DNA of 26,882 nucleotides from an uncultured Chitinophagales bacterium (GTDB lineage Bacteria; Bacteroidota; Bacteroidia; Chitinophagales; Chitinophagaceae), in NCBI GenBank assembly GCA_946886475.1, contig CAMPIQ010000032.1, forward strand, positions 1 to 26,882, written 5' to 3'. Positions 150-22,717 of the stretch are shown here, one piece after another (the stretch's first letter is position 1; every line of letters begins with the position of its first letter). The position numbers and the translations under genes were made by a program. The notes under the pieces were generated by a model that was given only the letters and a program-made list of their open reading frames with translations, had not been told where the DNA came from and searched no databases.

Positions 150-184
150 TGGCTAATGGCCATTAGCTGATGACCTTTGGCCTG
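150..184. repeat. degenerate 7-base tandem array, 5 units (TGGCYNN)
   Basis: Five consecutive 7-base units can be read: TGGCTAA, TGGCCAT, TAGCTGA, TGACCTT, TGGCCTG. The fixed core is TGGC in the first four positions, with one substitution in two units. The array lies in the spacer between the tRNA and the small membrane-protein gene. The unit is the same as in the array that overlaps the end of mutS2, also five units and 35 bases. Confidence 0.6.
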
Positions 185-255
185 ATCGACGATATGGTAT
201 ATTCAATCAAAAAATTCCTGAAAGGTTTCCACTGAAACGTTTAAGACTGAATAAA

Positions 256-263
256 TAGATTTG
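256..263 (+). promoter_or_regulatory. -7 box TAGATTTG
   Basis: TAGATTTG matches TAnnTTTG fully. No good TTTG -33 box is seen 19-21 bases upstream. The box overlaps a TTG codon at 261 that could otherwise be read as a start of the downstream gene, so a transcript from here would not contain that TTG and would favour ATG 312, with a leader of about 44 bases. Confidence 0.45.
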
Positions 264-311
264 CCGTATGTAATAAGTGCGAACACGTTTCGCTTTCCTG
301 TGCAACAAATT

Positions 312-521
312 ATGAAAGTATATTCCTGGTTCTTTATCATCATCTCCCTGGCCGAACTGGTTTTTTCTGCCGGCTATGTGCTCCTGCGAATGAAATGGGA
401 TAAGATCCTGCTCTGGGGATTCCTTATCTATCTCATTGCCATGATGGCCGGTTATATCAGTTTGCGGATAGAACGCTATAATAAAAAAAAGAAAGCACTG
501 CTTGATTCCCTGCCTGAATAA
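312..521 (+). CDS. small membrane protein, two predicted transmembrane helices, unknown function
   Basis: The protein has 69 residues from ATG 312. It has two hydrophobic stretches, about residues 4-25 (YSWFFIIISLAELVF...) and 30-48 (ILLWGFLIYLIAMMAGY), followed by a basic tail with a KKKK run near the C-terminus. This suggests a small inner-membrane hairpin with its charged tail in the cytoplasm. I do not recognise a family. A longer reading from TTG 261 is possible but that codon lies inside a perfect -7 box, and the extra residues are not hydrophobic or otherwise informative. It stands alone between the tRNA and a spacer. The hydrophobic pattern and clean frame make it likely real. Confidence 0.6.
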   Translation: MKVYSWFFIIISLAELVFSAGYVLLRMKWDKILLWGFLIYLIAMMAGYISLRIERYNKKKKALLDSLPE

Positions 522-844
522 AATTTACCTGTCGCTGAACCTTGCTTTACCTGTTTAGCACAGGCATTTAAAGCAACAAGAGCAATAAAGGCATGATAGT
601 TTATTTTGTCATTCAAATAACCAGATCCCTCCTTCGTCAGAATAAAGCTGAAAGGCTATCGCTCGTGGTTCTTCCTCGCGCATGTATTGAACTACATTCA
701 TAGCGGCTGCTACACTCGTTACCGCAATATGCGGCACAGGCAGCATGACAAGATTTTAAATTTCGCGAATGGTTTGACTAATTTTATTTATGTATTTAGT
801 AGCTTATTAGTTGACAAGCGCAGCAGATGCGTGAACATTATCCA
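522..844. other. spacer of 323 bases with one weak small ORF
   Basis: No convincing gene. The minus strand holds an ATG-initiated frame from 746 to 609 (45 residues, beginning MLPVPHIAVTSVAAAM and ending GGIWLFE) whose GC content and codon choice look more coding than the flanks. It lies downstream of the DUF1080 gene in the same direction. It may be a small gene, a remnant, or chance. A weak 5-bp inverted repeat (CCTGT/ACAGG, 550-564) follows it. No RNA gene or mobile element is recognised. Confidence 0.35.
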
Positions 845-1585
845 CTACAGTTTCCTGATCATAATATTCCTGAACCATACATTATCACCATGGTCCTGCA
901 AGGCGATCTTTCCTTTTTTATAGGTGCCAAAATCAGGCATGGATTTAAACTTGCTTCTCGAAACCATCAACTTCCAGTTCTCATCCCACATGGTGGTCTT
1001 TAAAGTACTTTGTCCATTCATCCTGAATTCAAGCTGGCCGTTATTGGCAATGATCTCCACTTCATTCCATTCACCCGGAGGCCTGGTTGCTTCCCTGGCA
1101 ATTACCAGATCGTACAGGTCGCCCGAGCGGTGAGAAGCGATCTTTCCATCAGGATGACCGGGTTCAGTAGCACTGCCATTATCCAACACCTGCATTTCCG
1201 GACCTGTCTCCCATGGGTATTTATATTTTGAAGGATCCTCATGAATGTAAAATATGATCCCGCTGTTTCCTTTGGGTGCGATCTTCCATTCCAATTTGAG
1301 GTGAAAGTTTTCGAATTCCATATCCGTAACAATATCTCCACCTTCCGCCGTCTGCCATTCTTTTTTTGCAGCTGCGTCCAGGCGCAATGCACCATCCTCA
1401 ATTTTCCATGCTTTGCCAATGGTGTTTTTACCATAGGTATGCCACCCTGCTGTTGTTTTACCATCGAATAATGAGATCCATTCTCCGGTCTTTGCTGCAT
1501 TATTATTGTTATTCATCTGGTTCTGTTTGGTGGAATTACATGCTATAAATAATACTGCCGAAAAATAAAAAATCAGTTTATACAT
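845..1585 (-). CDS. DUF1080 / 3-keto-disaccharide hydrolase-type lipoprotein
   Basis: The protein has 246 residues. The N-terminus is a lipoprotein signal with the lipobox FIAC at Cys16, followed by an Asn-rich linker and one DUF1080 (3-keto-disaccharide hydrolase, concanavalin-like) domain from about residue 35 to the end. Visible family features are SLFDGKTTAGWH near the start, GNSGIIFYIHE, GPEMQVLD, the PPGEWNEVEI strand, and LQDHGDNVWFRNI at the C-terminus. Characterised members act on 3-keto-glycosides, breaking the glycosidic bond of sugars already oxidised at C3. It is the last gene of the minus group, four bases after the cytochrome c gene, so it is probably cotranscribed with a sugar oxidoreductase, an isomerase and the cytochrome. 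Location would be periplasmic or outer-membrane anchored. The exact substrate cannot be read from the sequence. Confidence 0.85.
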   Translation of the reverse strand: MYKLIFYFSAVLFIACNSTKQNQMNNNNNAAKTGEWISLFDGKTTAGWHTYGKNTIGKAWKIEDGALRLDAAAKKEWQTAEGGDIVTDMEFENFHLKLEWKIAPKGNSGIIFYIHEDPSKYKYPWETGPEMQVLDNGSATEPGHPDGKIASHRSGDLYDLVIAREATRPPGEWNEVEIIANNGQLEFRMNGQSTLKTTMWDENWKLMVSRSKFKSMPDFGTYKKGKIALQDHGDNVWFRNIMIRKL

Positions 1586-1589
1586 AATC

Positions 1590-1964
1590 CTATTTTTTTA
1601 ATGATAATACATATTTTACCATAGTCCTGGCATCCTCTTTAGATAAATTGGGATGGGGTATCATGGGAACGCCGCCCCAAATGCCCTGGCTTCCATCCAT
1701 TATTCTTTGTGCAAGCGTATCCACCACCCCTGGATCGTTTTTATATTTTTCCGCAATGGCTTCATAAGCCGGACCTACAAGGGTTTCGCTCACCTTGTGA
1801 CATTGCAGGCAATTATTTTGAGTAATCAATTCCAGGCCTCTTTCTTCTTCCGCACTCATTTTTACTTCGCTGTTGTTTGCTTTTTCAGGTGTCTGCTCAT
1901 TTCCATTACTGTTACACGCAATAACAAGAGCAATGACCGATACTATTAAAATTGCTTTTTTCAT
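1590..1964 (-). CDS. lipoprotein cytochrome c, single haem
   Basis: The protein has 124 residues. A signal with lipobox VIAC (Cys17) is followed by a charged linker and a class I cytochrome c domain. The haem site is C52-L-Q-C55-H56, and Met101 in GGVPMIPHP is the likely sixth ligand. The stretch NNCLQCHKVSETLVGPAY is typical of small cytochrome c domains that accept electrons from periplasmic dehydrogenases. It lies 13 bases after the isomerase gene and 4 bases before the DUF1080 gene. In known glucoside 3-dehydrogenase systems a cytochrome c takes electrons from the GMC flavoprotein; here the GMC gene is in the divergent group about 5 kb away, so this partner role is inferred. Confidence 0.88.
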   Translation of the reverse strand: MKKAILIVSVIALVIACNSNGNEQTPEKANNSEVKMSAEEERGLELITQNNCLQCHKVSETLVGPAYEAIAEKYKNDPGVVDTLAQRIMDGSQGIWGGVPMIPHPNLSKEDARTMVKYVLSLKK

Positions 1965-1977
1965 TCCGGTTGATTAT

Positions 1978-3033
1978 TTATTTAAGTCCAAGAATTTTTT
2001 TATTCAGTTCTACATCTGCACCTGCCCCAGCAAAATCATCAAATGCTTTATCCGTAACACGGATGATATGATCATTTATGAATTGCGCTCCTTCCCTTGC
2101 TCCGTCTTCCGGATGTTTTATGCAACACTCCCACTCCATCACCGCCCATCCTTTATAACCATATTGTGTGAGCTTGCTGAATATGCTTTTGAAATCCACC
2201 TGCCCGTCACCGGGAGACCGATACCTTCCTGCACGGTTCAGCCAACTTTGATACCCACCGAATGTTCCCTGTTTACCGGTTGGGTTGAATTCGGCATCCT
2301 TTACATGAAAGGCCCTGATGCGTTCATGATAATGATCGATGTATTGAAGATAATCCAGCTGCTGTAAAACAAAATGTGAGGGATCATAAAGTAAACAGGC
2401 CCTAGGGTGTTGGTTTACTTTATCCAAAAACATTTCATAGGTTATGCCATCAAACAGGTCTTCACCCGGATGAATCTCATAACATACATCTACTCCGCAT
2501 TCATCAAAATAATTTAAAATGGGTGTCCATCTTTTCGCGAGTTCCTTAAATCCTTCTTCCACCAGACCCTCCGGCCTTTGTGGCCAGGGATGGAACGTAT
2601 GCCATAATAAGGCACCGCTGAAAGATGGGCAGGCTGTCAATTCCAGGTTCTGCGATGCTTTTGCGGCATATCTCATTTGCTGAATGGCCCATTCTGTTCT
2701 GGCGCTGCTGTTATTTTTTACCTGTGCAGGAGCAAAGGCATCAAAGAGGTCATCATAAGCCGGATGAACAGCTATCAGCTGACCTATCAGATGCGTAGCC
2801 AGCTCTGTGATCTCCAGTCCCCTTTCTTTTGTCCTTCCTTTCAATTCATCTGCATAGGTTTTGCTTTCAGCTGCTTTTTGAAGATCAATGCACCGGGCAT
2901 CCCATACAGGAATTTGCACTCCTTTAAAACCTAGTGAGCCGGCCCACTGGCAAATGGAATCCATTTCATTGAAGGGTGCCTGTTCGCCAAGAAACTGTGC
3001 AAGGAATATTCCAGGACCTTTGATAGTTGTCAT
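1978..3033 (-). CDS. sugar phosphate isomerase/epimerase family TIM barrel (cytoplasmic)
   Basis: The protein has 351 residues from ATG 3033. It is a xylose-isomerase-like TIM barrel of the AP endonuclease family 2 superfamily. The usual metal-binding set is visible as Glu186 (VCYEIHPGE), Asp217 (LLYDPSH), His243 (AFHVKD) and Glu300 (AVMEWE). There is no signal peptide, so it should act in the cytoplasm, unlike the two Tat-type TIM barrels of the plus group. Such enzymes isomerise or epimerise keto sugars. The frame is open a further 28 codons upstream and would overlap the preceding Gfo/Idh gene, but that extension looks non-coding and contains a small 7-base repeat. Substrate unknown; a 3-keto sugar or its product fits the context. 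Confidence 0.85.
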   Translation of the reverse strand: MTTIKGPGIFLAQFLGEQAPFNEMDSICQWAGSLGFKGVQIPVWDARCIDLQKAAESKTYADELKGRTKERGLEITELATHLIGQLIAVHPAYDDLFDAFAPAQVKNNSSARTEWAIQQMRYAAKASQNLELTACPSFSGALLWHTFHPWPQRPEGLVEEGFKELAKRWTPILNYFDECGVDVCYEIHPGEDLFDGITYEMFLDKVNQHPRACLLYDPSHFVLQQLDYLQYIDHYHERIRAFHVKDAEFNPTGKQGTFGGYQSWLNRAGRYRSPGDGQVDFKSIFSKLTQYGYKGWAVMEWECCIKHPEDGAREGAQFINDHIIRVTDKAFDDFAGAGADVELNKKILGLK

Positions 3034-3053
3034 TAATAAATGATTTCGGTTAG

Positions 3054-3067
3054 TTTGACATTTGACC
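3054..3067. repeat. two 7-base units (TTTGACA, TTTGACC)
   Basis: Two adjacent units TTTGACA and TTTGACC lie in the 62-base gap between the Gfo/Idh gene and the isomerase gene, about 20 bases upstream of the isomerase start. The unit resembles the TTTRAAC unit of the two arrays in the plus group but lies in the opposite orientation relative to transcription. Two units alone could be chance; the position and likeness to the others make it worth recording. Confidence 0.35.
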
Positions 3068-3095
3068 CTTCCTTCATCAGGGCATGCTTTTGAAT

Positions 3096-4253
3096 TCATA
3101 CTCCAAACCTGGTCCACTTTTCCTCCGACTTACCTGATGCAATTACAGTATCAATAAAGGCCATACCCCTCACCCCGTCTTCCACCGAAGGAAAATCAAG
3201 CCATTCCGGTTTTGGTTTTACTCCATTGATCCTGGCTTTTACACAGAAAGCAAAATTGCGGTAATGGTTTGCAAAAGCTTCTATGAAACCTTCAGGATGT
3301 CCTGCTGGTGTTCTTGTATTGTGTTTGGCCACCTCGCTCAGATATCCATTGCCCGCTCTTAATATTTGAGCAGGTGCATCCGGCCATTTCATGATCAAAC
3401 TATTCGGGTCGGAATGTTTCCATTCCATTCCACCTTTTTCGCCATATATTTTAATGGTGAGCTCATTTTCTTCTCCGGTCAAAACCTGTGAGGCCACCAA
3501 TACCCCCGATGCACCATTGTTAAACCTTAACAAGACGGCACCATCATCATCAAGTTGTCTTCCTTCCACTACAATATTAATATCGGCACAGATATTTACC
3601 ACCTGTAATCCCGAAATATATTCCGCAAGGTGAAAGGCATGCGTTCCAATATCTCCCATAGCACCGGCCTTTCCACTCCTGGAGGGATCCGTTCTCCATG
3701 AAGCCTGTTTTTGTCCGGGCCTGGATTCCAGAAATTCACTCAGCCAGCCCTGAGGATAGGTTACAAAAATTTTACGGATGTTTCCAATCGCATTTTTTCT
3801 TATTCTTTCCCTGGCTTCCTTTATCATTGGGTATCCGGAATAAGTATGGGTAAGGCAAAAATAATTTCCCGTTGTACCTACAATGGCCTTCAGTTTTTTT
3901 GCTTCCTCAAGATCAAAGGTCATTGGTTTATCCAGCACCACATGAAATCCATTTTCCAGAGCCATTTTTGCAGGATCAAAATGAACATGATTGGGTGTAA
4001 CGATTGAAACAAAATCCATTCTTTGATCTGCCGGTAATTTCTTTTCCGTTAAGATCATTTCCTGATAATTTCCATAGACCCTGTTGGCGGGAAGATAAAG
4101 TTGCTCACCAGCCAGTTTTGATTTTTGAGGATCGGCGCTGAAAGCCCCACATACAAGTTCAATGTCCCCATCCATAAAAGCTGCTGTTCTGTGCACCGCA
4201 CCGATAAATGCACCCGGACCACCACCGATCATGCCCATTCTTATTTTTCGCAT
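3096..4253 (-). CDS. Gfo/Idh/MocA family oxidoreductase (cytoplasmic)
   Basis: The protein has 385 residues. It has an N-terminal Rossmann fold with an unusual nucleotide loop, MIGGGPGAFIGAVH (residues 8-21), and a C-terminal Gfo/Idh alpha/beta domain. The family EKP motif appears as Asp108-Lys109-Pro110 (VVLDKPMTFD), with Lys109 the expected catalytic residue. The second conserved block is GDIGTHAFHLAEY, with Asp201, His205 and His208. No signal peptide is present. It is the first gene of the minus group, divergent from the MFS permease across 283 bases. Such enzymes oxidise or reduce a sugar hydroxyl or ketone with NAD(P). In this locus it may reduce or oxidise at C3; the direction is not visible. 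Confidence 0.88.
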   Translation of the reverse strand: MRKIRMGMIGGGPGAFIGAVHRTAAFMDGDIELVCGAFSADPQKSKLAGEQLYLPANRVYGNYQEMILTEKKLPADQRMDFVSIVTPNHVHFDPAKMALENGFHVVLDKPMTFDLEEAKKLKAIVGTTGNYFCLTHTYSGYPMIKEARERIRKNAIGNIRKIFVTYPQGWLSEFLESRPGQKQASWRTDPSRSGKAGAMGDIGTHAFHLAEYISGLQVVNICADINIVVEGRQLDDDGAVLLRFNNGASGVLVASQVLTGEENELTIKIYGEKGGMEWKHSDPNSLIMKWPDAPAQILRAGNGYLSEVAKHNTRTPAGHPEGFIEAFANHYRNFAFCVKARINGVKPKPEWLDFPSVEDGVRGMAFIDTVIASGKSEEKWTRFGV

Positions 4254-4536
4254 TGTGTTTTGGGATTAGTTGCCTGGTTGATTAAGTTGCTAAAGTTAAC
4301 ACTGGAAATGTATAAACCCGTCAACCCATCAACTTATCATTCTTATCATGTAGCCAGCCTGCGCTTCCAAAAAAATTCCTTCTCAATTAAAATGTCAAAT
4401 GAAATTTAATGCTACATTTAAAGGCCACTGTTGATATGATAGAATGAATTAATTTAATTGCCTGTTCATGATATTTTTTCAACAACAACCGGTACTGTTT
4501 TAACAACGAATCATTTTAAAACATAACAAACTGCTG
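4254..4536. other. divergent control region of the sugar locus
   Basis: This AT-rich spacer must hold the promoters of both gene groups. On the minus strand TAACTTTA (4298-4291) and on the plus strand TACATTTA (4412-4419) each match TAnnTTTG with only the last base changed; neither has a clear TTTG -33 box at 19-21 bases. An 8-base repeat lies at 4315-4338. No palindrome typical of a LacI/GntR operator stood out by eye, and no regulator gene is present in the locus. Confidence 0.4.
4315..4338. repeat. 8-base tandem repeat, 3 units (AACCCGTC)
   Basis: AACCCGTC, AACCCATC and AACTTATC follow each other directly, and a fourth related piece (ATTCTTATC) follows with one extra base. Unlike the other arrays of this window the period is 8, not 7. 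It lies in the divergent control region of the sugar locus. Confidence 0.5.
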
Positions 4537-5808
4537 ATGAAATCAACCACCTATGCCCAGCTTTCCTTCATGATGTTTTTAAATTTTTTTATCTGGGGCG
4601 CCTGGTTCGTTACACTCGGAACTTTTTTAGGAAATAATCTCGGTGCGGATGGGGATGAATCCGCTAAAGTTTTTTCCACCCAGTCCTGGGGTGCCATTAT
4701 TGCTCCCTTTATCATTGGGCTGATAGCCGACCGTTATATCAATGCAGAAAGGATACTGGGTGTGCTGCACCTGGCAGGTGCGGTGCTTATGTACCAGTTG
4801 TATACAGCTGATAGCATCAGCAGCTTCTATCCCTTTGTATTAGTATACATGATCCTTTATATGCCTACACTGGCACTGGTAAATTCAGTTTCATTCAGGC
4901 AAATGAAAGATCCTGAAAAGTCATTTTCCGGCATCAGGATCTGGGGTACCATTGGCTGGATTGTGGCTGGCTTACTTATCAGTTTTTATTTCCATTGGGA
5001 TAATGCGGAAAATGTTAAGCAGGGTCTTTTAAAAAATACTTTCCTTATGGCTGGTATTGCCTCTGCTGTTCTTGGCCTGTTCAGTTTTACGCTGCCTAAA
5101 ACACCACCTTCAAAAAATACGGGAGAAAAGGTAAGTATCAAAGAAATCCTGGGGCTCGATGCCCTGAAACTTCTTAAGGACAGAAACTTCGCGGTCTTTT
5201 TTATTGCTTCCGTTTTGATTTGTATTCCGCTGGCATTTTATTATATGAATGCCAATCCTTTCCTTTCAAATGTTGGAATGGAAAACCCAACTGGTAAAAT
5301 GACGATCGGTCAAATTTCTGAAGTATTATTTCTTTTATTGCTTCCTGTTTTTTTTAGCCGTTTTGGTTTTAAAAAAACCATCCTTGTTGGCATGTTTGCC
5401 TGGGCATTGCGATATGTTTTATTTGCCTATGGCAATGCAGGCGAACTAAGTTTTATGCTGATCATTGGCATTGCACTGCATGGCATTTGTTATGATTTTT
5501 TCTTTGTATCGGGACAGATCTATACCAATGCGAGAGCCGGAGAAAGATATAAAAGCTCTGCGCAGGGCCTGATCACTTTAGCCACTTATGGTATCGGCAT
5601 GCTGATAGGTTTTGAAATTGCAGGTGCTGTAACAGATGCATATAAACTTGGTGAAAAATCTTTTAATTACGAAATGGTCTGGACCATTCCCGCAGGTATT
5701 GCTTTTGCGGTTATGCTTTTATTCCTTGCCCTGTTCAGGGATGAAAAGAAAAGAGCTGTCAATTCAACAGATGCAGAAAAAGGGCTGTCTTCAACGTCTA
5801 TTTCTTAA
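4537..5808 (+). CDS. MFS permease, nucleoside:H+ symporter (NupG-like) family
   Basis: The protein has 423 residues and about twelve hydrophobic segments. The start MKSTTYAQLSFMMFLNFFIWGAWF and the block IAPFIIGLIADRYINAERIL are characteristic of the nucleoside:H+ symporter branch of the major facilitator superfamily, whose Bacteroidota members often lie beside Gfo/Idh and isomerase genes and probably carry sugars rather than nucleosides. IRIWGTIGWIVAGL is another family block (about residues 133-146). It opens the plus gene group; the next gene begins 11 bases after its stop. In the model for this locus it would bring the oxidised or cleaved sugar from the periplasm into the cytoplasm. Substrate is not predictable from sequence alone. 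Confidence 0.85.
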   Translation: MKSTTYAQLSFMMFLNFFIWGAWFVTLGTFLGNNLGADGDESAKVFSTQSWGAIIAPFIIGLIADRYINAERILGVLHLAGAVLMYQLYTADSISSFYPFVLVYMILYMPTLALVNSVSFRQMKDPEKSFSGIRIWGTIGWIVAGLLISFYFHWDNAENVKQGLLKNTFLMAGIASAVLGLFSFTLPKTPPSKNTGEKVSIKEILGLDALKLLKDRNFAVFFIASVLICIPLAFYYMNANPFLSNVGMENPTGKMTIGQISEVLFLLLLPVFFSRFGFKKTILVGMFAWALRYVLFAYGNAGELSFMLIIGIALHGICYDFFFVSGQIYTNARAGERYKSSAQGLITLATYGIGMLIGFEIAGAVTDAYKLGEKSFNYEMVWTIPAGIAFAVMLLFLALFRDEKKRAVNSTDAEKGLSSTSIS

Positions 5809-5819
5809 ATTGTAAGCAA

Positions 5820-6704
5820 ATGAAAACCACCAGGAGGAAAATAATCAAAGACCTGTTGCTGACAGGAACGGCAGTTACCATGGTTCCATCTATTTCTCTT
5901 GCGGCATGCAATGATCCTAAAAGAAATGGCCTGAAAAAAAATATAAGCCATTCCGTTTGCAGGTGGACATATAATTTTCTGGACCTTGATGAATTGTGCA
6001 CCACAGTAAAGAATATTGGATTCTCAGCCATTGACCTTGTGGGTCCCAAAGAATGGAACATCCTCAAAAAGCATAATGTAGACTCTTCCATGTGTAATGG
6101 CGCAGAGATCAGTCTTACTGAAGGCTGGAATGACCCACAATACCATTCCATTCTGATTAAAAATTATACAGAACACATTAACCTTGTTGCTGCCGCAGGA
6201 TATAAAAACCTCATATGCTTCAGTGGTAACAGAAAAGGAATGGATGATGAAACGGGACTGAATAATTGTGTTGAAGGATTGAAGCAGGTGATGTCACTGG
6301 CAGAAAAAAAAGGGGTGGTGATACAAATGGAATTATTCAACAGCAAGATCAACCATCCCGATTACATGTGCGATAAAAGCGCCTGGGGGATTGAACTTTG
6401 TAAAAGGCTTGGTTCGCCCAATTTCAAATTGCTTTATGACATCTACCACATGCAGATCAATGAAGGAGATATCATACGCACCATAAAAGACCATCATCCT
6501 TATTTTGGGCATTACCATACGGCCGGCGTACCGGGAAGAAACGAAATAGATGAAACCCAGGAACTTTATTACCCTGCTATCATGAAAGCTATTTTATCAA
6601 CCGGGTACAAAGGATATGTAGCGCAGGAATTTATTCCCACCGGAAAGGACAATGAAGCAAAGGTTTCAGCGTTGAGAAAAGCAGTGGGTATTTGTGATGT
6701 TTAA
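5820..6704 (+). CDS. Tat-type TIM-barrel isomerase lipoprotein (hydroxypyruvate isomerase-like)
   Basis: The protein has 294 residues. Arg5-Arg6 (TTRRKIIKDLLLTG) plus a hydrophobic stretch form a twin-arginine signal, and SLAAC at residues 26-30 can act as a lipobox, so the mature protein would be a folded, exported lipoprotein. The TIM barrel resembles hydroxypyruvate isomerase/sugar isomerase proteins. Metal-site residues are Glu171 (VIQMELFNSK), Asp207 (LLYDIYHMQ), His233 (GHYHTAGVPG) and Glu270 (VAQEFIP). Export of an isomerase implies that its sugar substrate is made outside the cytoplasm, in line with periplasmic oxidation by the GMC enzyme. It is followed by a 114-base gap that holds a 7-base array. 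Confidence 0.85.
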   Translation: MKTTRRKIIKDLLLTGTAVTMVPSISLAACNDPKRNGLKKNISHSVCRWTYNFLDLDELCTTVKNIGFSAIDLVGPKEWNILKKHNVDSSMCNGAEISLTEGWNDPQYHSILIKNYTEHINLVAAAGYKNLICFSGNRKGMDDETGLNNCVEGLKQVMSLAEKKGVVIQMELFNSKINHPDYMCDKSAWGIELCKRLGSPNFKLLYDIYHMQINEGDIIRTIKDHHPYFGHYHTAGVPGRNEIDETQELYYPAIMKAILSTGYKGYVAQEFIPTGKDNEAKVSALRKAVGICDV

Positions 6705-6790
6705 GATAGATAGTAATTGAATTGATGCAATTAATCAGGAAAATAAACTAATCATTACTTAAATAAAATTTAGAGTACAGGGGTGCTGAC

Positions 6791-6811
6791 TTTGAACTTT
6801 AAACTTTGAAC
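6791..6811. repeat. 7-base tandem array, 3 units (TTTRAAC), before the GMC gene
   Basis: TTTGAAC, TTTAAAC and TTTGAAC follow each other, then TTAATTT runs directly into the ATG at 6819. The same unit in four copies precedes the gene for the probable small subunit of the same enzyme at 10013. The array fills the end of an unusually long gap (114 bases) within a gene group whose other junctions are 2 to 12 bases except the second array-bearing one. Confidence 0.65.
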
Positions 6812-6818
6812 TTAATTT

Positions 6819-8492
6819 ATGGCAAATAATACATTCGATGCAATTGTAGTTGGCTCCGGCATAAGTGGAGGCTGGGCTGCAAAAGAACTTACCGAAAAGG
6901 GATTAAAAGTTGTTATGCTTGAACGTGGACATAATATTGAACACATCAAAGATTATGTTACAAAAGAACAATGGGAATTTCCTCACCGTGGGGGACGCAC
7001 ACAACAAATGATCGAGGATTATCCTGTATTGCGCAGAGATTACCCTTTGAATGAAATGAACCTTAAATTCTGGGCCGAGGATAAAAAAAACCCATATACG
7101 GAAATTAAAAGATTTGACTGGTATCGCGGTTACCATGTAGGGGGAAGATCTTTGATGTGGGGAAGACAATCGTACAGGTGGAATGAATTTGATTTTGAAG
7201 CCAATGCTAAAGAAGGTGTAGCAGTGGACTGGCCTATCAGATACAAAGACCTTGCTCCCTGGTATGATTACGTAGAAGGATTTGCAGGCATCAGCGGATC
7301 TAAAGAAGGTCTGCCCGCGTTGCCTGATGGAAACTTTATGCCGCCCATGGAAATGAATTGCGTGGAAAAAGATGTATCTGCCCGGATCAAGCAGCATTAT
7401 AATAATAACAGGCATATGATCATTGGCCGTGTGGCCAATATTACGCAACCACATCACGACCGTACCAATTGTCAATACAGGAATAAGTGCTGGCTGGGTT
7501 GCATGTTCGGAGGCTATTTCAGCACGCAGTCTGCTACCCTGCCTGCGGCCATGAAAACCGGTAATTTAACCCTGGTTCCCTTCTCCATTGTTACCGAGAT
7601 CATTTATGATAAGGATACAAAGAAAGCAAAAGGTGTACGTGTGATCAATGCGGAAACAAAAGAAGCAACGGAATATTTTGCAAAGATCATTTTCGTGAAT
7701 GCATCCACTTTAAATTCAACCTGGCTCCTTATGAATTCCGCCACTGATATCTGGCCCGGTGGTTTAGGAAGCAGCAGCGGAGAACTCGGACATAATTTGA
7801 TGGACCATCATTTCCGTGTGGGTGCCAGTGGTGATGTGGATGGCTATGACGACAAATGGTATTATGGAAGAAGACCAAATGGTGTTTATGTAGTGCGTTA
7901 TCGAAATCTATTTAATGACAAGAGAGATTATCTCCGTGGTTTTGGTTACCAGGGTGGTGCAAGCCGTGATGGCTGGGGCCGCGAAATTGCGGAACTCACC
8001 ATTGGGGGCGATTACAAAGATGCCTTGTGTGAACCGGGCCCCTGGAAGATGGGAATGACGGCATTTGGAGAAATGTTACCCTACCATGAGAACAAAGTAT
8101 CTCTTGACAAAAACAAAAAAGATTTTTGGGGAATGCCGGTTCTGGCTATTGATTGTGAAATAAAAGATAATGAAAGAAAGATGCGGATCGATATGGCCAA
8201 TGATGCCAAAGAAATGCTTGAAGCCGCAGGATTAAAAAATGTACACAGCTGGGATAGTGAATATGCACCGGGAATGGGCATACATGAAATGGGAACTGCC
8301 AGAATGGGAAGAGATCCAAAAACCTCCGTTCTAAATGAATGGAACCAGGTTTGGGATTGCAAAAATGTATTCATCACCGATGGAGCGGCAATGACCTCTG
8401 CGTCCTGCGTCAATCCATCCTTAACTTATATGGCACTTACTGCAAGAGCAACAGATTATGCGGTAAGGGAATTGAAAAAAATGAACCTCTGA
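6819..8492 (+). CDS. GMC-family FAD sugar dehydrogenase, catalytic subunit (glucoside 3-dehydrogenase-like)
   Basis: The protein has 557 residues. The FAD-binding loop is GSGISG (residues 12-17) and VVMLERG gives the ribose-binding Glu. The C-terminal GMC domain has His489 in HEMGTARMG and Asn532 in CVNPSLTYMAL, the expected catalytic His-Asn pair. Cys218, Cys224 and Cys228 form C-x5-C-x3-C (CQYRNKCWLGC), the ligand spacing known for the [3Fe-4S] cluster of FAD-dependent glucose dehydrogenase. There is no signal peptide, yet such enzymes work in the periplasm; they are carried out by a Tat-bearing small subunit, and a gene for one lies at 10013. The likely reaction is oxidation of a sugar or glycoside, probably at C3, with electrons passing through the cluster to a cytochrome. 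It is followed after two bases by the exported Gfo/Idh gene. Confidence 0.88.
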   Translation: MANNTFDAIVVGSGISGGWAAKELTEKGLKVVMLERGHNIEHIKDYVTKEQWEFPHRGGRTQQMIEDYPVLRRDYPLNEMNLKFWAEDKKNPYTEIKRFDWYRGYHVGGRSLMWGRQSYRWNEFDFEANAKEGVAVDWPIRYKDLAPWYDYVEGFAGISGSKEGLPALPDGNFMPPMEMNCVEKDVSARIKQHYNNNRHMIIGRVANITQPHHDRTNCQYRNKCWLGCMFGGYFSTQSATLPAAMKTGNLTLVPFSIVTEIIYDKDTKKAKGVRVINAETKEATEYFAKIIFVNASTLNSTWLLMNSATDIWPGGLGSSSGELGHNLMDHHFRVGASGDVDGYDDKWYYGRRPNGVYVVRYRNLFNDKRDYLRGFGYQGGASRDGWGREIAELTIGGDYKDALCEPGPWKMGMTAFGEMLPYHENKVSLDKNKKDFWGMPVLAIDCEIKDNERKMRIDMANDAKEMLEAAGLKNVHSWDSEYAPGMGIHEMGTARMGRDPKTSVLNEWNQVWDCKNVFITDGAAMTSASCVNPSLTYMALTARATDYAVRELKKMNL

Positions 8493-8494
8493 TT

Positions 8495-9952
8495 ATGGAA
8501 AAAGAAAAAGAAAAAGAAACAGGCAGTTCCCGACGTGATTTTATAAAAAATACAGCCATCGTTTCTGCAGGATTTTTTATTGTACCCCGGCATGTACTGG
8601 GAAGAGGATACACTGCCCCCAGCGACAGGTTAATTGTAGCGGGGATTGGTGTTGGCGGAAAAGGGGAAAGTGATATCATGAATTTTTACAAATCCGGAAA
8701 AGCAGATATAGCTTTCCTCTGCGATGTAGATGACAGAAGAGCAGCCAACTCCATTAAAAATTTTCCCAAAGCAAAATATTATAAGGACTGGAGAGAATTA
8801 TATGACAAGGAATCTAAAAACTTCGATGCCGTTTCCGTTTCTACTCCTGATCATAACCATGCCGTTCAAACCCTGGCTGCCATGCAGCTTGGCAAGCATG
8901 TGTATGTTCAAAAACCACTGACACATGATATTTACGAAGCCAGGATACTGACACTTGCTGCAGAAAAATACAAGGTGGTTACACAAATGGGAAACCAGGG
9001 CGCATCCGGCGATGGTGTAAGACAATTGATGGAATGGTATGATGCCAATGTGATCGGCAATGTACACACGGTTTATTGCTGGACCAACAGGCCCGTGTGG
9101 CCTCAGGGAATTCAATGGCCCGCAACCAAGGCGCCGGTACCTAAAGAACTGGACTGGGATCTCTGGCTGGGAACCGCTCCATACAAAGATTATGTAGATA
9201 AACTGGTTCCATTTAACTGGCGCGGATGGTGGGATTATGGAACAGGCGCACTGGGTGACATGGGATGTCATATTATTGAACCTGCGTTCAGGGTTTTGAA
9301 CCTTCAATATGCTACAGATGTACAGGCCAGCGTAGGATCTGTTTATGTAGATGAATTCAAGCGTGGATATTTCCCCGAAAGCTGTCCGCCTTCAAGTCAT
9401 GTTACACTGACCTTTCCAAAAACAAAAAAAACAAAAGATGAAGTGGTGGTGCATTGGATGGATGGTGGCATACAACCGGAAAGACCTGAAGAATTAGGTC
9501 CCAATGAAATGTTTGGTGATGGTGGTAATGGTGCCTTGTTCATAGGAACAAAAGGAAAGATGATGTGCAGTACCTATGCTGCCAATCCAAGATTACTTCC
9601 TACATCAAAAACAGATAAGGTGAAGGTGAAGCAAAAATATGAAAGGGTGCCAGGCGGTGCAGAAGGTCATTATGCACAGTGGGTTGAAGCCTGTATTGCC
9701 GGTTACGGTAAAAAAGAAGTAAGCTCGCCATTTGAAATTGCAGGACCGGTAACAGAATCATTATTAATGGCCAACCTTGCCATCCGGGCGCACGATATCC
9801 GAAAAGCAAAAGCGGATGGAAAAGGTTTCGACTGGCCCGGAAGAAATATTAAACTGGTTTGGGATAACGATAATATGAAGGTTAGCAATTTTGATGATGT
9901 GAACCAGTTTGTGAAAAGGGAGTACAGGGATGGATATACCTTAAAATTGTGA
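8495..9952 (+). CDS. Tat-exported Gfo/Idh/MocA family oxidoreductase
   Basis: The protein has 485 residues from ATG 8495, two bases after the GMC stop. The N-terminus is a charged stretch made by three GAAAAA repeats (8498-8515), then Arg13-Arg14 (SSRRDFIKNTAIVSAG), a hydrophobic core and a likely cleavage before residue 40: a twin-arginine signal. The Rossmann domain follows (IVAGIGVGGKGE, residues 47-58). The EKP motif appears as Gln139-Lys140-Pro141 (VYVQKPLTHD). The second domain contains GALGDMGCHIIEP with Asp255 and His259. Export through Tat suggests a tightly held NAD(P), as in periplasmic glucose-fructose oxidoreductase, since free cofactor is absent outside. The frame is open further upstream within the GMC gene, but the signal peptide sets the start. 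A periplasmic redox step on the keto sugar is inferred. Confidence 0.88.
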   Translation: MEKEKEKETGSSRRDFIKNTAIVSAGFFIVPRHVLGRGYTAPSDRLIVAGIGVGGKGESDIMNFYKSGKADIAFLCDVDDRRAANSIKNFPKAKYYKDWRELYDKESKNFDAVSVSTPDHNHAVQTLAAMQLGKHVYVQKPLTHDIYEARILTLAAEKYKVVTQMGNQGASGDGVRQLMEWYDANVIGNVHTVYCWTNRPVWPQGIQWPATKAPVPKELDWDLWLGTAPYKDYVDKLVPFNWRGWWDYGTGALGDMGCHIIEPAFRVLNLQYATDVQASVGSVYVDEFKRGYFPESCPPSSHVTLTFPKTKKTKDEVVVHWMDGGIQPERPEELGPNEMFGDGGNGALFIGTKGKMMCSTYAANPRLLPTSKTDKVKVKQKYERVPGGAEGHYAQWVEACIAGYGKKEVSSPFEIAGPVTESLLMANLAIRAHDIRKAKADGKGFDWPGRNIKLVWDNDNMKVSNFDDVNQFVKREYRDGYTLKL

Positions 9953-9978
9953 ATCAGTGATTGCGAGGTAAATACTCT

Positions 9979-10006
9979 TTTGAACATTAAACTTTAAACT
10001 TTAAGA
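9979..10006. repeat. 7-base tandem array, 4 units (TTTRAAC), before the small-subunit gene
   Basis: TTTGAAC, ATTAAAC, TTTAAAC and TTTAAGA run to six bases before the ATG at 10013. The unit is the same as in front of the GMC gene. The 60-base gap it sits in is the second longest within the plus gene group. Confidence 0.65.
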
Positions 10007-10012
10007 AATACA

Positions 10013-10627: not shown

Positions 10628-10639
10628 AAATTAATTTCT

Positions 10640-11735: not shown

Positions 11736-11775
11736 TTGACAATTTTATTTATTACTGCAATTTACTTACCAGATA

Positions 11776-11802
11776 TGAAAAGCCCCGGTAGAAACCAGGG
11801 CT
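11776..11802 (-). terminator. intrinsic terminator of the 11834-12274 gene
   Basis: On the minus strand AGCCCTGG (802-795), loop TTTCTA, and CCGGGGCT (788-781) pair over eight positions, one of them G-U, and the stem is followed by TTT and an AT-rich tract. It lies about 30 bases after the stop at 11834 and before the small lipoprotein gene. Confidence 0.6.
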
Positions 11803-11833
11803 GCGACTACTACTATATGCTTATGAGGAAAAC

Positions 11834-12274: not shown

Positions 12275-12312
12275 AAAAATTATTTTAATGATTTATTGTT
12301 TTAATTCTGACG

Positions 12313-12343
12313 CAAAACTATAAATGCATGAAATTTTTATCAA
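12313..12343 (-). promoter_or_regulatory. Bacteroidota-type promoter for the 11834-12274 gene
   Basis: On the minus strand TTG (343-341) is followed by 20 bases and TAGTTTTG (320-313), a full match to TAnnTTTG with correct spacing. Transcription would start near 12308, leaving a leader of about 33 bases before ATG 12274. Confidence 0.65.
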
Positions 12344-12391
12344 GCTGTATGGTAATGGATCGTGGATTTCAGGTAATGAAATGAGATTCTT

Positions 12392-12426
12392 TGGCTATTG
12401 GCCGTTGGCCGCTGGCTATTGGCTTT
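12392..12426. repeat. 7-base tandem array, 5 units (TGGCYNN), overlapping the end of mutS2
   Basis: TGGCTAT, TGGCCGT, TGGCCGC, TGGCTAT and TGGCTTT follow without a break. TGGC is invariant in all five units. The array overlaps the last codons of the mutS2 gene; the TAG stop (12418-12416, minus strand) lies inside the fourth unit. The same unit and the same number of copies occur at 150-184. Confidence 0.75.
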
Positions 12427-14515
12427 TCTCTTTTACCAATGAAAGATCATTCAGATCAATCTGCATAGGTAATAAACCAATTTTTACTACCGCCTTCCTG
12501 CCCCTTAATTCAAGTACTACGCCTACCTGCAGGTTCTTTTTCATTTTAACCGTATCTCCTACTTTGATATCGCCTTTTACTTCTTCATATTTGGAATTCA
12601 ATTGCTTTTGTTTTTTGCTTGTCACCTTCTTCTCATCCTTTGGAAATAACAGTGCAGCCATTTCTTTAACCACTTTGTTCTTATCCTCGGATTTCTTCCA
12701 CTCCACTACCATTTGGCGCAATTTTCTTTCGGTATCCTTCAGGTACGCAATCCGGTCTTCTGTTACTTTGTTTTGATGCTTCAGCAATTCAACCTGCTGC
12801 TTATGTCTTTCCCGGTCAAGCACCTGTTCCATTTCCCTTTTCAACCGCTCATTCTCTTTCAGCAGGCTTTGTAATTCTTTTTCTTTTTGCTGAACTATTT
12901 GAAGATCCTGTTCGGTGCGGTTTAATAACTTATCAAGCCGGAAATGTTCTTCATCTACCAGGCCCCTGGCTTTCTGGATCAGTCTTTTATCCATTCCAAT
13001 TCTTTCTGCAATTGAAAAAGTATATGAACTCCCGGGTTTTCCAACCATTAGCTTATACTGAGGCAATAATTTTTTTTCATCAAAAGCCATGGCGCCATTA
13101 ATGATCCCCTGTGTTTTGTTGGCCATCACTTTAAGGTTGAGGTAATGAGTAGTCACAATACCAAATGCATGCTTCCTTGAAAGTTCTTCAAGTATTACTT
13201 CTGCAAAGGCTCCACCCAGGTTGGGATCACTGCCGCTTCCCAGTTCATCTATAAAGAACAAGGTTTTTCCATTTGCAGATTCCATAAAATGTTTCATGCT
13301 CAGCAAATGACTGCTATAAGTACTCAACTCAAATTCTATACTTTGAGTATCACCAATGTGGATCATTAATTGTTTAAAGATGCCGAATTGTGAAGATGGA
13401 TGAACAGGAACTAACAATCCACTCTGCACCATCATTTGCAGGAGTCCAACAGTTTTAAGTGTCACGGTTTTGCCTCCTGCATTTGGACCACTGATCACCA
13501 GTATCCGGTTTTTTTCGTCAAGTGTTACATCAACAGGAATGGTTTGCTTTGATGACCTGCGGTTATACAATAGAAGAAGCGGATGAAAAGCTTTTACCAG
13601 ATGAACATGTGCCTTATCTGCCAGCACCGGATATTCTCCCTGAATATCTGATGCCAGTACAGCCTTGCCTCTAATGAAGTCATATTCACCGGAAATGGTA
13701 TGATAGCTGTTCAGCAATGTAGCATAGCGGGAGAGCTGAGCGGTCAGGGATTTTAATATCCTGTACACTTCTCTTCTTTCAGCCCCTTCCAGTTCGTATA
13801 GTTCATTATTTAATTCAATGGTTTCTTCGGGTTCTATAAAAGTTGTTCGGCGGCTGTCGCTTTCCCCATGCAGTATACCCTTCACCAGTCTTTTTTGTTC
13901 GGCAAAAACGGCCACTACCCTTCTTCCATTCATAAAGCTCTCTTCAATTTCGGCCAGGTATCCCTGCTTATTTAATTTTCCAACAACACGGTCGAACAAC
14001 TTTCGCAATTCATTTCGCTTCCGGAAAAGATTCATTCTGATAGACTGGAGTTCCGGAGAAGCATTATCTTTTACGTTGCCGTTATCATCTATCACATCAT
14101 TGATCAGCTTAAGGATGGCGGGTTCATAATGAATATTGGAAATTACCTGCACTAATGCGTTATAGGTTTCTTTTCGCTCTGCATCAAACCACCTGAAAAT
14201 ACTTTCCATGCAAATGAGTAGTTTTCTGATAGAAACCAATTCTTCTCCGGCCAGCATGGCCCCCTGAATACTCAATAGTTTTAATTCCCGGGAAAGATTC
14301 AAAACATAATCGTTAGGGAAATGGATGCTATTCATCTCCAGCTGTTTGTACTCGTGAGATTGCTTTAATTCCCTTTCAATAAAGTCTTTTTTGGTATGTA
14401 TGCGAAGTTCAGAAGCCTTTGATTTTGCATATTCGGTGCGGCATTTTTCCTTAAGCAGCATTTTGATCTTATCAAATTCTAGTTGCACCGGGGCCGAATC
14501 TGGATACAGTTTCAT
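12416..14515 (-). CDS. mutS2: MutS2-family ATPase without C-terminal Smr domain
   Basis: The protein has 699 residues. It has the MutS2 N-terminal helical core, an ABC-type ATPase domain with Walker A GPNAGGKT (residues 343-350) and Walker B LFFIDELGSGSDP (Asp423, Glu424), then the H-loop region TTHYLNLK, a long charged coiled coil (about 515-620), and a small beta domain (VGDTVKMKKNLQVG to the end). Well-known MutS2 proteins (about 785 residues in Bacillus subtilis) end with a Smr nuclease domain carrying LDxRG and HGxGxG motifs; none of this is present here or in the following bases. The last residues are encoded by the 7-base array. Members act on stalled or collided ribosomes and in recombination control; without Smr the nuclease role would be lost. 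It has its own -7 box. Confidence 0.9.
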   Translation of the reverse strand: MKLYPDSAPVQLEFDKIKMLLKEKCRTEYAKSKASELRIHTKKDFIERELKQSHEYKQLEMNSIHFPNDYVLNLSRELKLLSIQGAMLAGEELVSIRKLLICMESIFRWFDAERKETYNALVQVISNIHYEPAILKLINDVIDDNGNVKDNASPELQSIRMNLFRKRNELRKLFDRVVGKLNKQGYLAEIEESFMNGRRVVAVFAEQKRLVKGILHGESDSRRTTFIEPEETIELNNELYELEGAERREVYRILKSLTAQLSRYATLLNSYHTISGEYDFIRGKAVLASDIQGEYPVLADKAHVHLVKAFHPLLLLYNRRSSKQTIPVDVTLDEKNRILVISGPNAGGKTVTLKTVGLLQMMVQSGLLVPVHPSSQFGIFKQLMIHIGDTQSIEFELSTYSSHLLSMKHFMESANGKTLFFIDELGSGSDPNLGGAFAEVILEELSRKHAFGIVTTHYLNLKVMANKTQGIINGAMAFDEKKLLPQYKLMVGKPGSSYTFSIAERIGMDKRLIQKARGLVDEEHFRLDKLLNRTEQDLQIVQQKEKELQSLLKENERLKREMEQVLDRERHKQQVELLKHQNKVTEDRIAYLKDTERKLRQMVVEWKKSEDKNKVVKEMAALLFPKDEKKVTSKKQKQLNSKYEEVKGDIKVGDTVKMKKNLQVGVVLELRGRKAVVKIGLLPMQIDLNDLSLVKEKSQ

Positions 14516-21555: not shown

Positions 21556-21643
21556 ACGGAATGAAGCCATAGTGTTAATTGTTTTGAAGCCGGGCAGGGC
21601 CAGTTTATTCCCAATTTTTACACAGCACGGGAGTGTTTGAAAA

Positions 21644-21673: not shown

Positions 21674-21700
21674 ACCCGAATCAAAAAATCAACACTGTTT

Positions 21701-22483
21701 ATGACGATCATTGTTCCTACCGACTTTTCTCAGGTTTCAAACAATGCCGCGCGTTATGCGGCTCAGATGATCAAGGGCCAATATGAAGTGAGCCTGCTGC
21801 TTTACCATGTGTACGATAAGGCTTCGGAAGCCAAAGAAGCGGCCTCCCTTATAGACAAATTGAAGACGGAATTACAATCGGACACTTATATAAAAATTGA
21901 GACACGACTTGATGAAGGTGGTGATATGATCGATGGACTTGAACGCATGGCAAGACATACGGACGCCCAACTTATTGTAATGGGCAATACGGGCCAGTCG
22001 AAACTTTCTGAAGTTTTCCTGGGCAGTAATACCCTTAAAATGGTTGAAAGAAATGTTTGTCCGGTTTTGATCATTCCGCCTTCTGCCCAGTTCACGCAGG
22101 TAAAAAATGTATGTCTGTTATCTGATTTTAAAGATGTTGAAACCAGTATCCCTCATGTTCCCATCAGGAATGTGCTGAAGATATTTAACCCCCATCTACA
22201 TATCATTAATGTGAATAGCGACCATTATGTATCCCTGACGGAAGAATTTTTAAAGGAGAGAAGCAGGTTGCTGAACATGTTCAATGAATTCAACACTGAA
22301 TTTTATTTCATTGGAACTTATGATCTTCACGAAACAGCGCAAACCTTTGTTTCTGATAAAAACATTGACATCCTGATCACCATCCCAAGAAATCATTCCT
22401 TCTTCGACAGTATTTTCAAAACAAGCAATACCAAGAAGCTGGTGTATGAAAGTGCGATTCCGATACTGGCAGCGCATGAATAA
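21701..22483 (+). CDS. tandem universal stress protein (UspA family)
   Basis: The protein has 260 residues made of two Usp domains. The first begins TIIVPTDFSQVSNNAARYA and carries an ATP-binding signature, GNTGQSKLSEVFLGSNT, close to the G-x2-G-x9-G-S/T pattern. The second (from about residue 135, VKNVCLLSDFKDVE) keeps the fold but its equivalent loop (PRNHSFFDSIFKTSNT) has lost the glycines, so only the first half is likely to bind ATP. Such proteins are general stress factors in the cytoplasm. It is divergent from smc and followed by a hairpin built in part from 7-base repeats. Confidence 0.9.
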   Translation: MTIIVPTDFSQVSNNAARYAAQMIKGQYEVSLLLYHVYDKASEAKEAASLIDKLKTELQSDTYIKIETRLDEGGDMIDGLERMARHTDAQLIVMGNTGQSKLSEVFLGSNTLKMVERNVCPVLIIPPSAQFTQVKNVCLLSDFKDVETSIPHVPIRNVLKIFNPHLHIINVNSDHYVSLTEEFLKERSRLLNMFNEFNTEFYFIGTYDLHETAQTFVSDKNIDILITIPRNHSFFDSIFKTSNTKKLVYESAIPILAAHE

Positions 22484-22485
22484 AA

Positions 22486-22513
22486 GAAGCTGTAAGCTGT
22501 GAGCTGCTTCCTG
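22486..22513. repeat. 7-base array after the stress-protein gene (NNAGCTG)
   Basis: GAAGCTG, TAAGCTG and TGAGCTG follow directly after the TAA stop, then the less similar CTTCCTG. The array supplies the left arm of the hairpin recorded at 22496-22525. Confidence 0.55.
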
Positions 22514-22525
22514 GCCGCTCACAGC
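22496..22525 (+). terminator. 9-bp hairpin after the stress-protein gene
   Basis: GCTGTGAGC (496-504), a 12-base loop and GCTCACAGC (517-525) form a perfect 9-bp stem 12 bases after the stop. The tail CTGTTATTT is only moderately T-rich, so it may stabilise the 3' end or stop transcription weakly. Confidence 0.5.
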
Positions 22526-22638
22526 CTGTTATTTACTTCAACACCTTAGAATTTCTGCAGCACTGATAAGCAGATAACTTTAAAATCACACGAAGCCCGC
22601 AGTTCGTAATTTCCTCCTATTTCCTTTCTTACACTTCA

Positions 22639-22670
22639 TTGCCTATTTTTACATAAATCGTTTACGTTTT
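22639..22670 (+). promoter_or_regulatory. possible promoter of the arginase gene
   Basis: TTG (639-641) is followed by 21 bases and TACGTTTT (663-670), which matches TAnnTTTG except at the last base. Transcription would start near 22675 and the 7-base array at 22690-22717 would lie in the leader. Confidence 0.35.
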
Positions 22671-22689
22671 TTGCAAACGCGCAAAAGAT

Positions 22690-22717
22690 CAAAGCCCCAG
22701 GGCTCAAGGCTCGTGGC
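22690..22717. repeat. 7-base array before the arginase gene (NNNNGGC)
   Basis: CAAAGCC, CCAGGGC, TCAAGGC and TCGTGGC follow each other and end ten bases before ATG 22728. GC in the last two positions of each unit (GGC in three of four) is fixed. The local GC content is well above the flanking spacer. Confidence 0.6.

What the first reader, a model, noticed from the sequence alone, without database searches (positions are those of the whole stretch)
150..22717. Family of strict 7-base tandem arrays in spacers, with different units but one period
Six arrays with period 7 can be read by eye: 150-184 (TGGCYNN x5), 6791-6811 and 9979-10006 (TTTRAAC x3, x4), 12392-12426 (TGGCYNN x5), 22486-22513 (NNAGCTG x3-4) and 22690-22717 (NNNNGGC x4), plus a two-unit case at 3054-3067. 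The unit sequences differ, yet the period stays at 7 and the arrays abut start or stop codons. This suggests one process that copies 7-base steps, rather than spread of one element. Heptamer repeats are known from cyanobacteria (STRR); I know of no named Bacteroidota class with changing units.
Basis: partly seen in the sequence, partly recalled or inferred. Interest (0 to 1): 0.7.

Follow-up and report, generated by a model that had tools for sequence, protein, structure and literature searches.

The report
Seven-base repeats at gene ends
The spaces between genes in this bacterium and many of its relatives carry short tandem repeats that step by 7 (or 8) bases, whose letters change from place to place and which sit against gene ends with a preferred strand direction; how they arise is not yet explained.

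Summary
Window spacers carry 4 period-7 arrays at >=15/21 matches against 0.14 expected; two of the six listed are weak, and the two-unit case is no evidence. The window is Chitinophagaceae, Flavisolibacter-like.

In stretches of seven relatives' genomes, spacers hold 201 period-7 and 75 period-8 arrays; other periods from 4 to 12 total 0-12 each. So the step is 7 or 8.

Found here: (1) arrays cluster at stop codons (136 against 62 at random); (2) the G-rich strand points away from the nearest ORF, at stops (78 of 92) and starts (50 of 57); (3) sister species keep arrays at the same spacers (31 shared of 166, odds ratio 44) while unit, rarely period, changes; (4) 171 of 446 have an inverted partner; (5) units are shared ten times more within than between genomes, mostly without shared flanks.

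In print already: this edge-and-strand rule for Xanthomonas and Nostoc heptamers, and heptamers in some Bacteroidetes. Best reading: 7/8-bp slippage plus fold-back copying, some kept as 3'-end hairpins. Why 7/8, and why the polarity, stays open.

The parts
150..184 (+). Weak period-7 array, unit TGGCYNN, about 100 bp from a partial tRNA-Ser
   Evidence: 15/28 at lag 7; not in the TRF list
6789..6813 (+). Period-7 array, unit ACTTTGA/ACTTTAA, ending 5 bp before ATG 6819
   Evidence: TRF score 43; 12/14; Longitalea orthologous spacers in L097 and L189 are printed without an array
9979..10004 (+). Period-7 array, unit TTTAAAC, ending 8 bp before ATG 10013
   Evidence: TRF score 38; 16/21
12388..12434 (-). 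Period-7 array, sense unit AATAGCC, overlapping the last codons and the TAG stop of the MutS-like ORF 12416-14515
   Evidence: no array at this gene end in 15 of 19 relatives, other units in L115, L117, L118, L119
22486..22514 (+). Period-7 array, unit AAGCTGT, directly after the Usp stop, running into a hairpin
   Evidence: RNA fold of 22481-22545 -23.9 kcal/mol, z -4.27; no array in the same gene pair of L001, L003, L049
22690..22717 (+). Weak period-7 array, unit NNNNGGC, ending 10 bp before ATG 22728 (arginase family)
   Evidence: 14/21 at lag 7; not in the TRF list
3054..3067 (+). Two-unit match TTTGACA/TTTGACC inside an ORF; not counted as an array
   Evidence: 6/7 at lag 7; ORF 1978-3117

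Best explanation
The window's arrays belong to a lineage-wide class of unit-variable 7- and 8-bp tandem arrays at ORF edges. Shown: step of 7 or 8, concentration in spacers, closeness to stop codons, G-rich strand leaving the ORF, unit number and unit identity differing between sister species at the same site, inverted second arms that repeat the order of variant units, arrays running into stop codons. Inferred: units are gained and lost by slipped-strand replication in 7/8-bp steps; fold-back (template-switch) copying makes the inverted arm; short copying between arrays spreads units inside a genome; arrays grow until the essential end of the ORF stops them. Some, above all the paired ones, may be kept because the transcript folds into a terminator-like hairpin. 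The cause of the 7/8 step and of the polarity is not shown.
For: Only lags 7 and 8 are strongly enriched (201 and 75 arrays in seven genome samples, shuffles at most 0.6 per sample). 16 orthologous same-unit pairs differ by at least one unit in 8 and at least two in 3. Unit replaced at conserved sites. Arms agree at 92% in the best register and 75% one unit off, over 145 pairs. 171 of 446 arrays have an inverted partner against 14 of 446 in the control. Array-rich G008 and G027 show no RVT_1 match, so no such enzyme seems needed.
Against: Slippage alone predicts neither the outward polarity, nor the lack of 5-, 6-, 9- and 10-bp classes, nor the reuse of units at unlinked sites. No slippage event was seen: the species compared are far apart (ortholog protein identity about 90%). 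More than half of the arrays have no inverted partner, and of four window arrays folded only one folds better than shuffles.
Confidence: 0.45

Rival explanations
1. The arrays are selected RNA elements at gene 3' ends: the two arms form terminator or transcript-stabilising hairpins, and repetition in 7/8-bp steps is an easy way to make long stems.
For: Stop-edge clustering; lag-7 density in convergent against divergent spacers 15.0 to 1.3 per 10 kb and 12.6 to 5.3; inverted partners; arrays kept at the same spacers; in tandem spacers fewer canonical hairpin-plus-T terminators with paired arrays (4 of 53) than without arrays (159 of 792, p 0.03); window 22481-22545 folds at z -4.27.
Against: In convergent spacers the terminator share hardly differs (paired 6 of 42, none 72 of 462), and unpaired arrays in tandem spacers are not significantly different (16 of 114, p 0.16). 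275 of 446 arrays lack a partner at score 12; arrays also lie before starts and in divergent spacers with the same polarity.
Confidence: 0.25
2. A templated, telomerase-like addition extends 3' DNA ends at breaks in spacers, which would put the same strand outward on both sides.
For: Polarity is the same at stops and starts and in divergent spacers. A bacterial enzyme that makes tandem-repeat DNA with variable units, DRT10, is described (PMC12632851, abstract and passages).
Against: No RVT_1 match in array-rich G008 and G027 (incomplete assemblies or very divergent enzymes could hide one). Dozens of units per genome do not fit one fixed template.
Confidence: 0.08
3. The arrays are binding sites of a protein that reads 7/8-nt steps in DNA or RNA (the translational-regulator idea of MacGregor 2015).
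For: Edge position; arrays kept at the same spacers; phases differ in conservation more than in 200 permutations (0.0316 against at most 0.0263).
Against: No common word across units; units are replaced at the same site.
Confidence: 0.07
4. The arrays are recombination or insertion points for gene clusters.
For: In the window two same-unit arrays lie at either end of about 12 kb that separates the MutS-like gene from tRNA-Ser; the two are close together in 7 of 19 relatives.
Against: Gene order is kept as often at array spacers (92 of 102) as at others (238 of 277, p 0.30). One weak array is involved.
Confidence: 0.05
5. Ordinary low complexity or chance.
For: 150-184, 22690-22717 and 3054-3067 taken alone are weak.
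Against: First-order Markov shuffles give at most 0.4 lag-7 arrays per genome sample where 2-51 are seen; the same scan of 100 kb of E. coli (8.4 kb of spacer) gives 0.
Confidence: 0.01

Closest known systems
GGGNATC / GGGGA(C/T)T heptamer repeats of Xanthomonas and Nostoc (Rehm 2015, PMC4692102; sections 13 and 16 and passages read)
   Same: Period 7, intergenic, within 0-50 bp of ORFs, after stops on the coding strand and before starts on the non-coding strand, some overlapping the stop; inverted pairs in Xanthomonas; few between divergent ORFs; length and sequence change between related species.
   Different: There one G-tract unit per genome is studied; here dozens of units per genome and mostly no GGG tracts, plus an 8-bp class.
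TAACTGA heptamer repeats of Beggiatoaceae, Cyanobacteria and five Bacteroidetes (MacGregor 2015, PMC4679880; abstract, sections 12 and 24 and passages read)
   Same: Period 7, intergenic, close to starts or stops, other heptamers mixed in; sister genomes of some lack them at the same site.
   Different: One fixed unit, not the units seen here; that unit has equal G and C, so it says nothing on the G-strand rule.
STRR heptamers of heterocystous cyanobacteria (recalled; only search listings and citing passages seen)
   Same: 7-bp degenerate units in spacers.
   Different: Host group and units; not compared here.
DRT10 tandem-repeat DNA synthesis (PMC12632851; abstract and passages read)
   Same: Short tandem DNA repeats of variable unit made in bacteria.
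   Different: Needs a reverse transcriptase and an RNA template; G008 and G027 show no RVT_1 match.
Intrinsic terminators
   Same: Hairpins after stop codons; a paired array with T-run in L033 and L036.
   Different: Period-7/8 arms; over half of the arrays have no second arm.

Membership tests
Heptamer intergenic repeats of the Xanthomonas/Nostoc kind (Rehm 2015) | Period 7 in spacers | tested here: met
   an added 8-bp class in relatives
Heptamer intergenic repeats of the Xanthomonas/Nostoc kind (Rehm 2015) | G-rich strand leaves the ORF at stops and starts | tested here: met
   78 of 92 and 50 of 57 in relatives; of the four strong window arrays three follow and the one at the MutS-like stop does not (22486 read)
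Heptamer intergenic repeats of the Xanthomonas/Nostoc kind (Rehm 2015) | Unit with a G-tract able to form a four-stranded structure | tested here: not met
   the window units lack repeated GGG tracts
TAACTGA repeats (MacGregor 2015) | Unit TAACTGA | tested here: not met
   window units are TGGCYNN, ACTTTRA, AAGCTGT and NNNNGGC
TAACTGA repeats (MacGregor 2015) | Intergenic heptamer direct repeats close to starts or stops | tested here: met
   positions
STRR of cyanobacteria | Heptamer units of the cyanobacterial set | not tested
   units not compared
Intrinsic terminator | Stable hairpin followed by a T-run | tested here: inconclusive
   one of four window arrays folded beats shuffles (z -4.27; others 0.43, -1.40, 0.24) and is followed by TTATTTACTT rather than a clean T-run; 9979 and 22690 were not folded
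Telomerase-like (DRT10) product | A reverse transcriptase in the genome | tested here: not met
   no RVT_1 match in G008 and G027, matches in 6 of 8 genomes, 5 over the cut-off; a divergent enzyme could be missed, and the window's genome is not held
REP/BIME elements | Conserved hairpin with a fixed 5' tetranucleotide and a cognate transposase | not tested
   considered from recall only

The most novel reading that the evidence does not exclude
One unknown, sequence-tolerant process writes 7- or 8-nt steps outward from ORF edges, with the G-rich strand running 5' to 3' away from the gene, at the same sites again and again with new units. The same edge-and-strand rule is in print for Xanthomonas and Nostoc, so it would be one mechanism shared by at least three bacterial groups, neither plain slippage nor a reverse transcriptase with a fixed template.
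Probability: 0.2. Interest if true: 0.85.

Novelty: new variant of a known kind. Interest (0 to 1): 0.55.

Why it matters
An excess of heptamer repeats in bacteria was noted in 2007 (as cited in PMC4692102), and that paper still calls the functional role open. Here many unit families, two step sizes, a strand rule tied to ORF edges, and unit replacement at fixed sites occur together in a family with named strains, so slippage, selection for 3'-end hairpins and templated addition can be told apart by strain comparison and RNA 3'-end mapping. Arrays also run into last codons and stop codons, which matters for annotation.

Tried and rejected
Mean autocorrelation over window spacers showed no lag-7 peak; local array counts do. 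A telomerase-like enzyme was the first idea to explain polarity on both edges; speak against it. A mobile element carrying arrays: flanks are similar in 4 of 1,554 pairs. Arrays as points of lost synteny: not supported. Stop codons in all frames as the reason for a step that is no multiple of three: consensus heptamers contain a stop in 30 of 46 sense against 24 of 46 antisense, octamers 17 of 20 against 9 of 20, but steps of 10 and 11 are not enriched like 7 and 8. A recognition word: phases differ in conservation but no single word is conserved, and block copying of variants could do the same. The L118 fold was taken at a wrong place and is not used. The heptamer pattern as a family marker in the phylum: its backward control hit about as much (7 genomes, 82 matches, against 12 genomes, 75 matches, of 198), because other heptamer families exist, so that search shows neither preference nor rarity of this unit.

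Limits of the counts: ORFs are my own longest-ORF calls (ATG, GTG or TTG starts; ATG alone from then on), so start edges are rough; spacers with N were dropped (shuffle count), and short spacers (under 20, 40 or 60 bp) as each script states; arrays with equal G and C are left out of polarity ratios (9 of 158 within 30 bp). Shuffles are first-order Markov simulations, not exact dinucleotide shuffles. In one search a few of the different-unit rows rest on weak hits in long stretches, so 11 is an upper figure. Some genes and loci in the 80-locus set are related, so counts are not independent.

Literature: (one search failed). The last, for Chitinophagaceae with intergenic and heptamer, found 0 papers. 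The library lacks most subscription papers, so 'not in print' claims rest on these searches alone.
Full report
WHAT WAS CHECKED. The window is 26,882 bp at 41% GC. Its SMC protein is 85-87% identical (best segment) to Flavisolibacter loci L001 and L002, the best of 80 loci kept, most of them titled Chitinophagaceae or genera of that family. No genome is held for the window. TRF lists four period-7 arrays. Against 100 Markov shuffles of 2,565 bp of window spacer, lag 7 at >=15/21 gives 4 against 0.14; of the other lags from 4 to 12 only lag 8 has a hit, one.

FAMILY-WIDE TEST. In the 80 loci plus the window (1.50 Mb, 90% coding) spacers hold 86 lag-7 arrays at >=16/21 against 22 in coding DNA. 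Lag 8 is enriched too (43), 42 of these not overlapping a lag-7 array, with octamers such as TGATGTGC and GATCACCC. With a looser cut (>=15/21) lag 7 gives 122 against 9.7 and lag 8 62 against 9.9, while the other lags from 4 to 12 give 7-18 against 8.4-15.7. In stretches of seven genomes (200 kb each, 400 kb for G009) lag 7 gives 51, 12, 17, 44, 2, 27 and 48 and lag 8 gives 29, 2, 1, 20, 5, 5 and 13 (G009, G016, G028, G027, G001, G005, G008), shuffles at most 0.4 and 0.6; the largest other counts are 6 at lag 9 in G027 and 4 at lag 11 in G028. G001, Flavisolibacter ginsengisoli, is poor. In 40 samples (up to 20 kb each) of genomes drawn from the phylum, lag 7 gives 23 against 1.0 and lag 8 3 against 1.2; 8 of the 40 samples hold these 26 arrays, one of them 14. 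Two E. coli stretches (100 kb, 8.4 kb of spacer) give 0. The class is patchy within the phylum.

WHERE THEY SIT AND HOW THEY POINT. The near end of the array lies -10 to +9 bp from a stop codon 136 times against 62 for random placement in the same spacers; for starts 49 against 42. Convergent spacers are rich and divergent ones poor: lag 7 per 10 kb 15.0 against 1.3 and 12.6 against 5.3 (there the tandem ++ class is highest, 13.2). Read outward from the nearest ORF edge within 30 bp, the array has more G than C in 78 of 92 cases at stops and 50 of 57 at starts, 9 ties left out. Farther away the rule fades at stops (34 out, 27 in) but not at starts (42 out, 11 in). It holds in divergent spacers (32 out, 6 in, 4 ties), in paired arrays (101 out, 14 in) and in unpaired ones (119 out, 27 in; within 40 bp). 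In the phylum sample it is 19 out, 6 in, 1 tie. Spacers without arrays show no skew after stops (G 4,160, C 4,157) and a mild one outward of starts (5,341 to 4,139), so part of the start-side signal may be general. Of the four strong window arrays, the one at the MutS-like stop breaks the rule.

ARRAYS AND STOP CODONS. Genes with an adjacent outward array end in TAG or TGA in 92 of 151 cases, those without an array within 100 bp in 731 of 1,991 (p 1e-8). Two cautions: a G in the stop can itself tip an overlapping array to 'outward' (with inward ones added the figure is 100 of 183), and genes with an array 12-100 bp away are also raised (56 of 111). The highest share is in arrays overlapping the stop (53 of 75). 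In L012/L031 and L015/L017 the last codons of some orthologous genes differ because each array runs into the ORF.

TURNOVER AT FIXED SITES. Two Longitalea species share arrays in 31 of 166 orthologous spacers, with 16 and 5 one-sided and 114 empty (odds ratio 44, p 7e-17; spacers of at least 60 bp: 29, 11, 3, 82). The unit is the same in 19, different in 11, the period different in 1. Of 16 same-unit, same-strand pairs, 8 differ by at least one unit in length and 3 by at least two. Examples: octamer TGATGTGC in L012 against heptamer AACGCAA in L031 after the same gene; octamer AACAAGTT in L015 against heptamer AATAGGC in L017. At the 3' end of the MutS-like gene the window has AATAGCC, L115 AATAGGC, L117 AAAGTTG, L118 AGTAGTG, L119 AATGGTG, and 15 of 19 relatives have no lag-7 array. 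At 80 SMC 3' ends, lag 7 is the best period at >=15/21 in L008, L025, L027, L033, L036, L045 and L055, and at 14/21 in two AT-rich cases; other periods lead in six (a clear 9-bp array in L007, weaker 6-, 9- or 10-bp hits in five); many of the rest show, by eye, an ordinary hairpin and T-run. The Usp-arginase spacer has an array in the window and none in L001, L003 or L049, so it was probably gained in the window's line.

INVERTED PARTNERS. 171 of 446 arrays have a reverse-complement partner in the same spacer at score 12 or more, against 14 of 446 with foreign spacers; for the 145 at score 14 or more the median gap between arms is 57 bp. Arms agree at 92% in the best register and 75% one unit off, and 71 of 145 are better by at least 15 points, so the order of variant units is shared. 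In Longitalea the segment between the arms at L012 4654-4778 and L031 4712-4838 looks inverted between species; read by eye, not tested.

UNITS SPREAD WITHIN GENOMES. Identical units occur in 188 of 4,488 array pairs within a genome and 79 of 18,277 between genomes, yet masked spacers share flanks in 4 of 1,554 within-genome pairs. One heptamer pattern has 230 (overlapping) hits in G009, 73 in G005, 26 in G004, 6 and 2 in two more and 0 in seven, with 1 in the backward control. In 198 phylum genomes the pattern hits 12 genomes and its backward control 7, with similar totals, since other heptamer families exist.

MECHANISM. Slippage gives unit gain and loss and drift; fold-back copying gives inverted arms; both are inferred. 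Selection as a 3'-end hairpin fits the position and the shortage of canonical terminators beside paired arrays in tandem spacers (4 of 53 against 159 of 792, p 0.03), but not convergent spacers (6 of 42 against 72 of 462), unpaired arrays (16 of 114, p 0.16), or start-side and divergent arrays. Of four window arrays folded, one folds better than shuffles; Rfam has no match in the window. A telomerase-like mechanism fits the polarity but not the missing RVT_1 matches in G008 and G027 or the number of units.

PRIOR WORK. Rehm 2015 (PMC4692102; [quoted passage not shown] MacGregor 2015 (PMC4679880) describes TAACTGA repeats in five Bacteroidetes, with other heptamers beside them. PMC6749651 (passages) notes heptamer-derived families in bacteria and suggests a possible transposition mechanism; PMC4060949 (passages) surveys simple repeats by phylum. 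What I did not find in these is the 7-or-8 step with dozens of units in one genome, the polarity in Bacteroidota, and unit replacement at orthologous sites.

Noticed in passing
window 1-46 (minus strand) and about 200-12390: The window starts inside a tRNA-Ser that matches the one of L102. In L102, L105 and L110 this tRNA lies 50-75 bp after the MutS-like gene, in L104, L106, L107 and L109 about 520-610 bp after it (7 of 19 loci); in the window about 12 kb of a GMC/MocA/AP-endonuclease-type gene cluster lies between, with TGGCYNN arrays in the same orientation near both ends.
   Followed up: partly
window 12416-14515: The gene whose stop lies inside an array encodes a protein with a MutS domain V and a weak (below cut-off) MutS2/Smr-associated SH3 match; a link to repeat dynamics would be speculation.
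   Followed up: no
L012 4654-4778 and L031 4712-4838: The segment between two inverted heptamer arrays looks inverted between the two Longitalea species (read by eye).
   Followed up: no
L007, 3' end of SMC: A 9-bp array (GTTGATTGG-like, 20/21 matches) at the same gene end where others have 7-bp arrays.
   Followed up: no
L012 7694-7801, L031 7711-7818, L015 8218-8325: The spacers with fast-changing arrays also hold a conserved Bacteroidales small SRP RNA (RF04183) a few tens to about 250 bp from the arrays.
   Followed up: partly
L232 (G140:C1:1-20000), L200 (G044:C1:1-20000): Long near-perfect arrays, one of 8-bp and one of 7-bp units, overlapping stop codons in other Bacteroidota.
   Followed up: no
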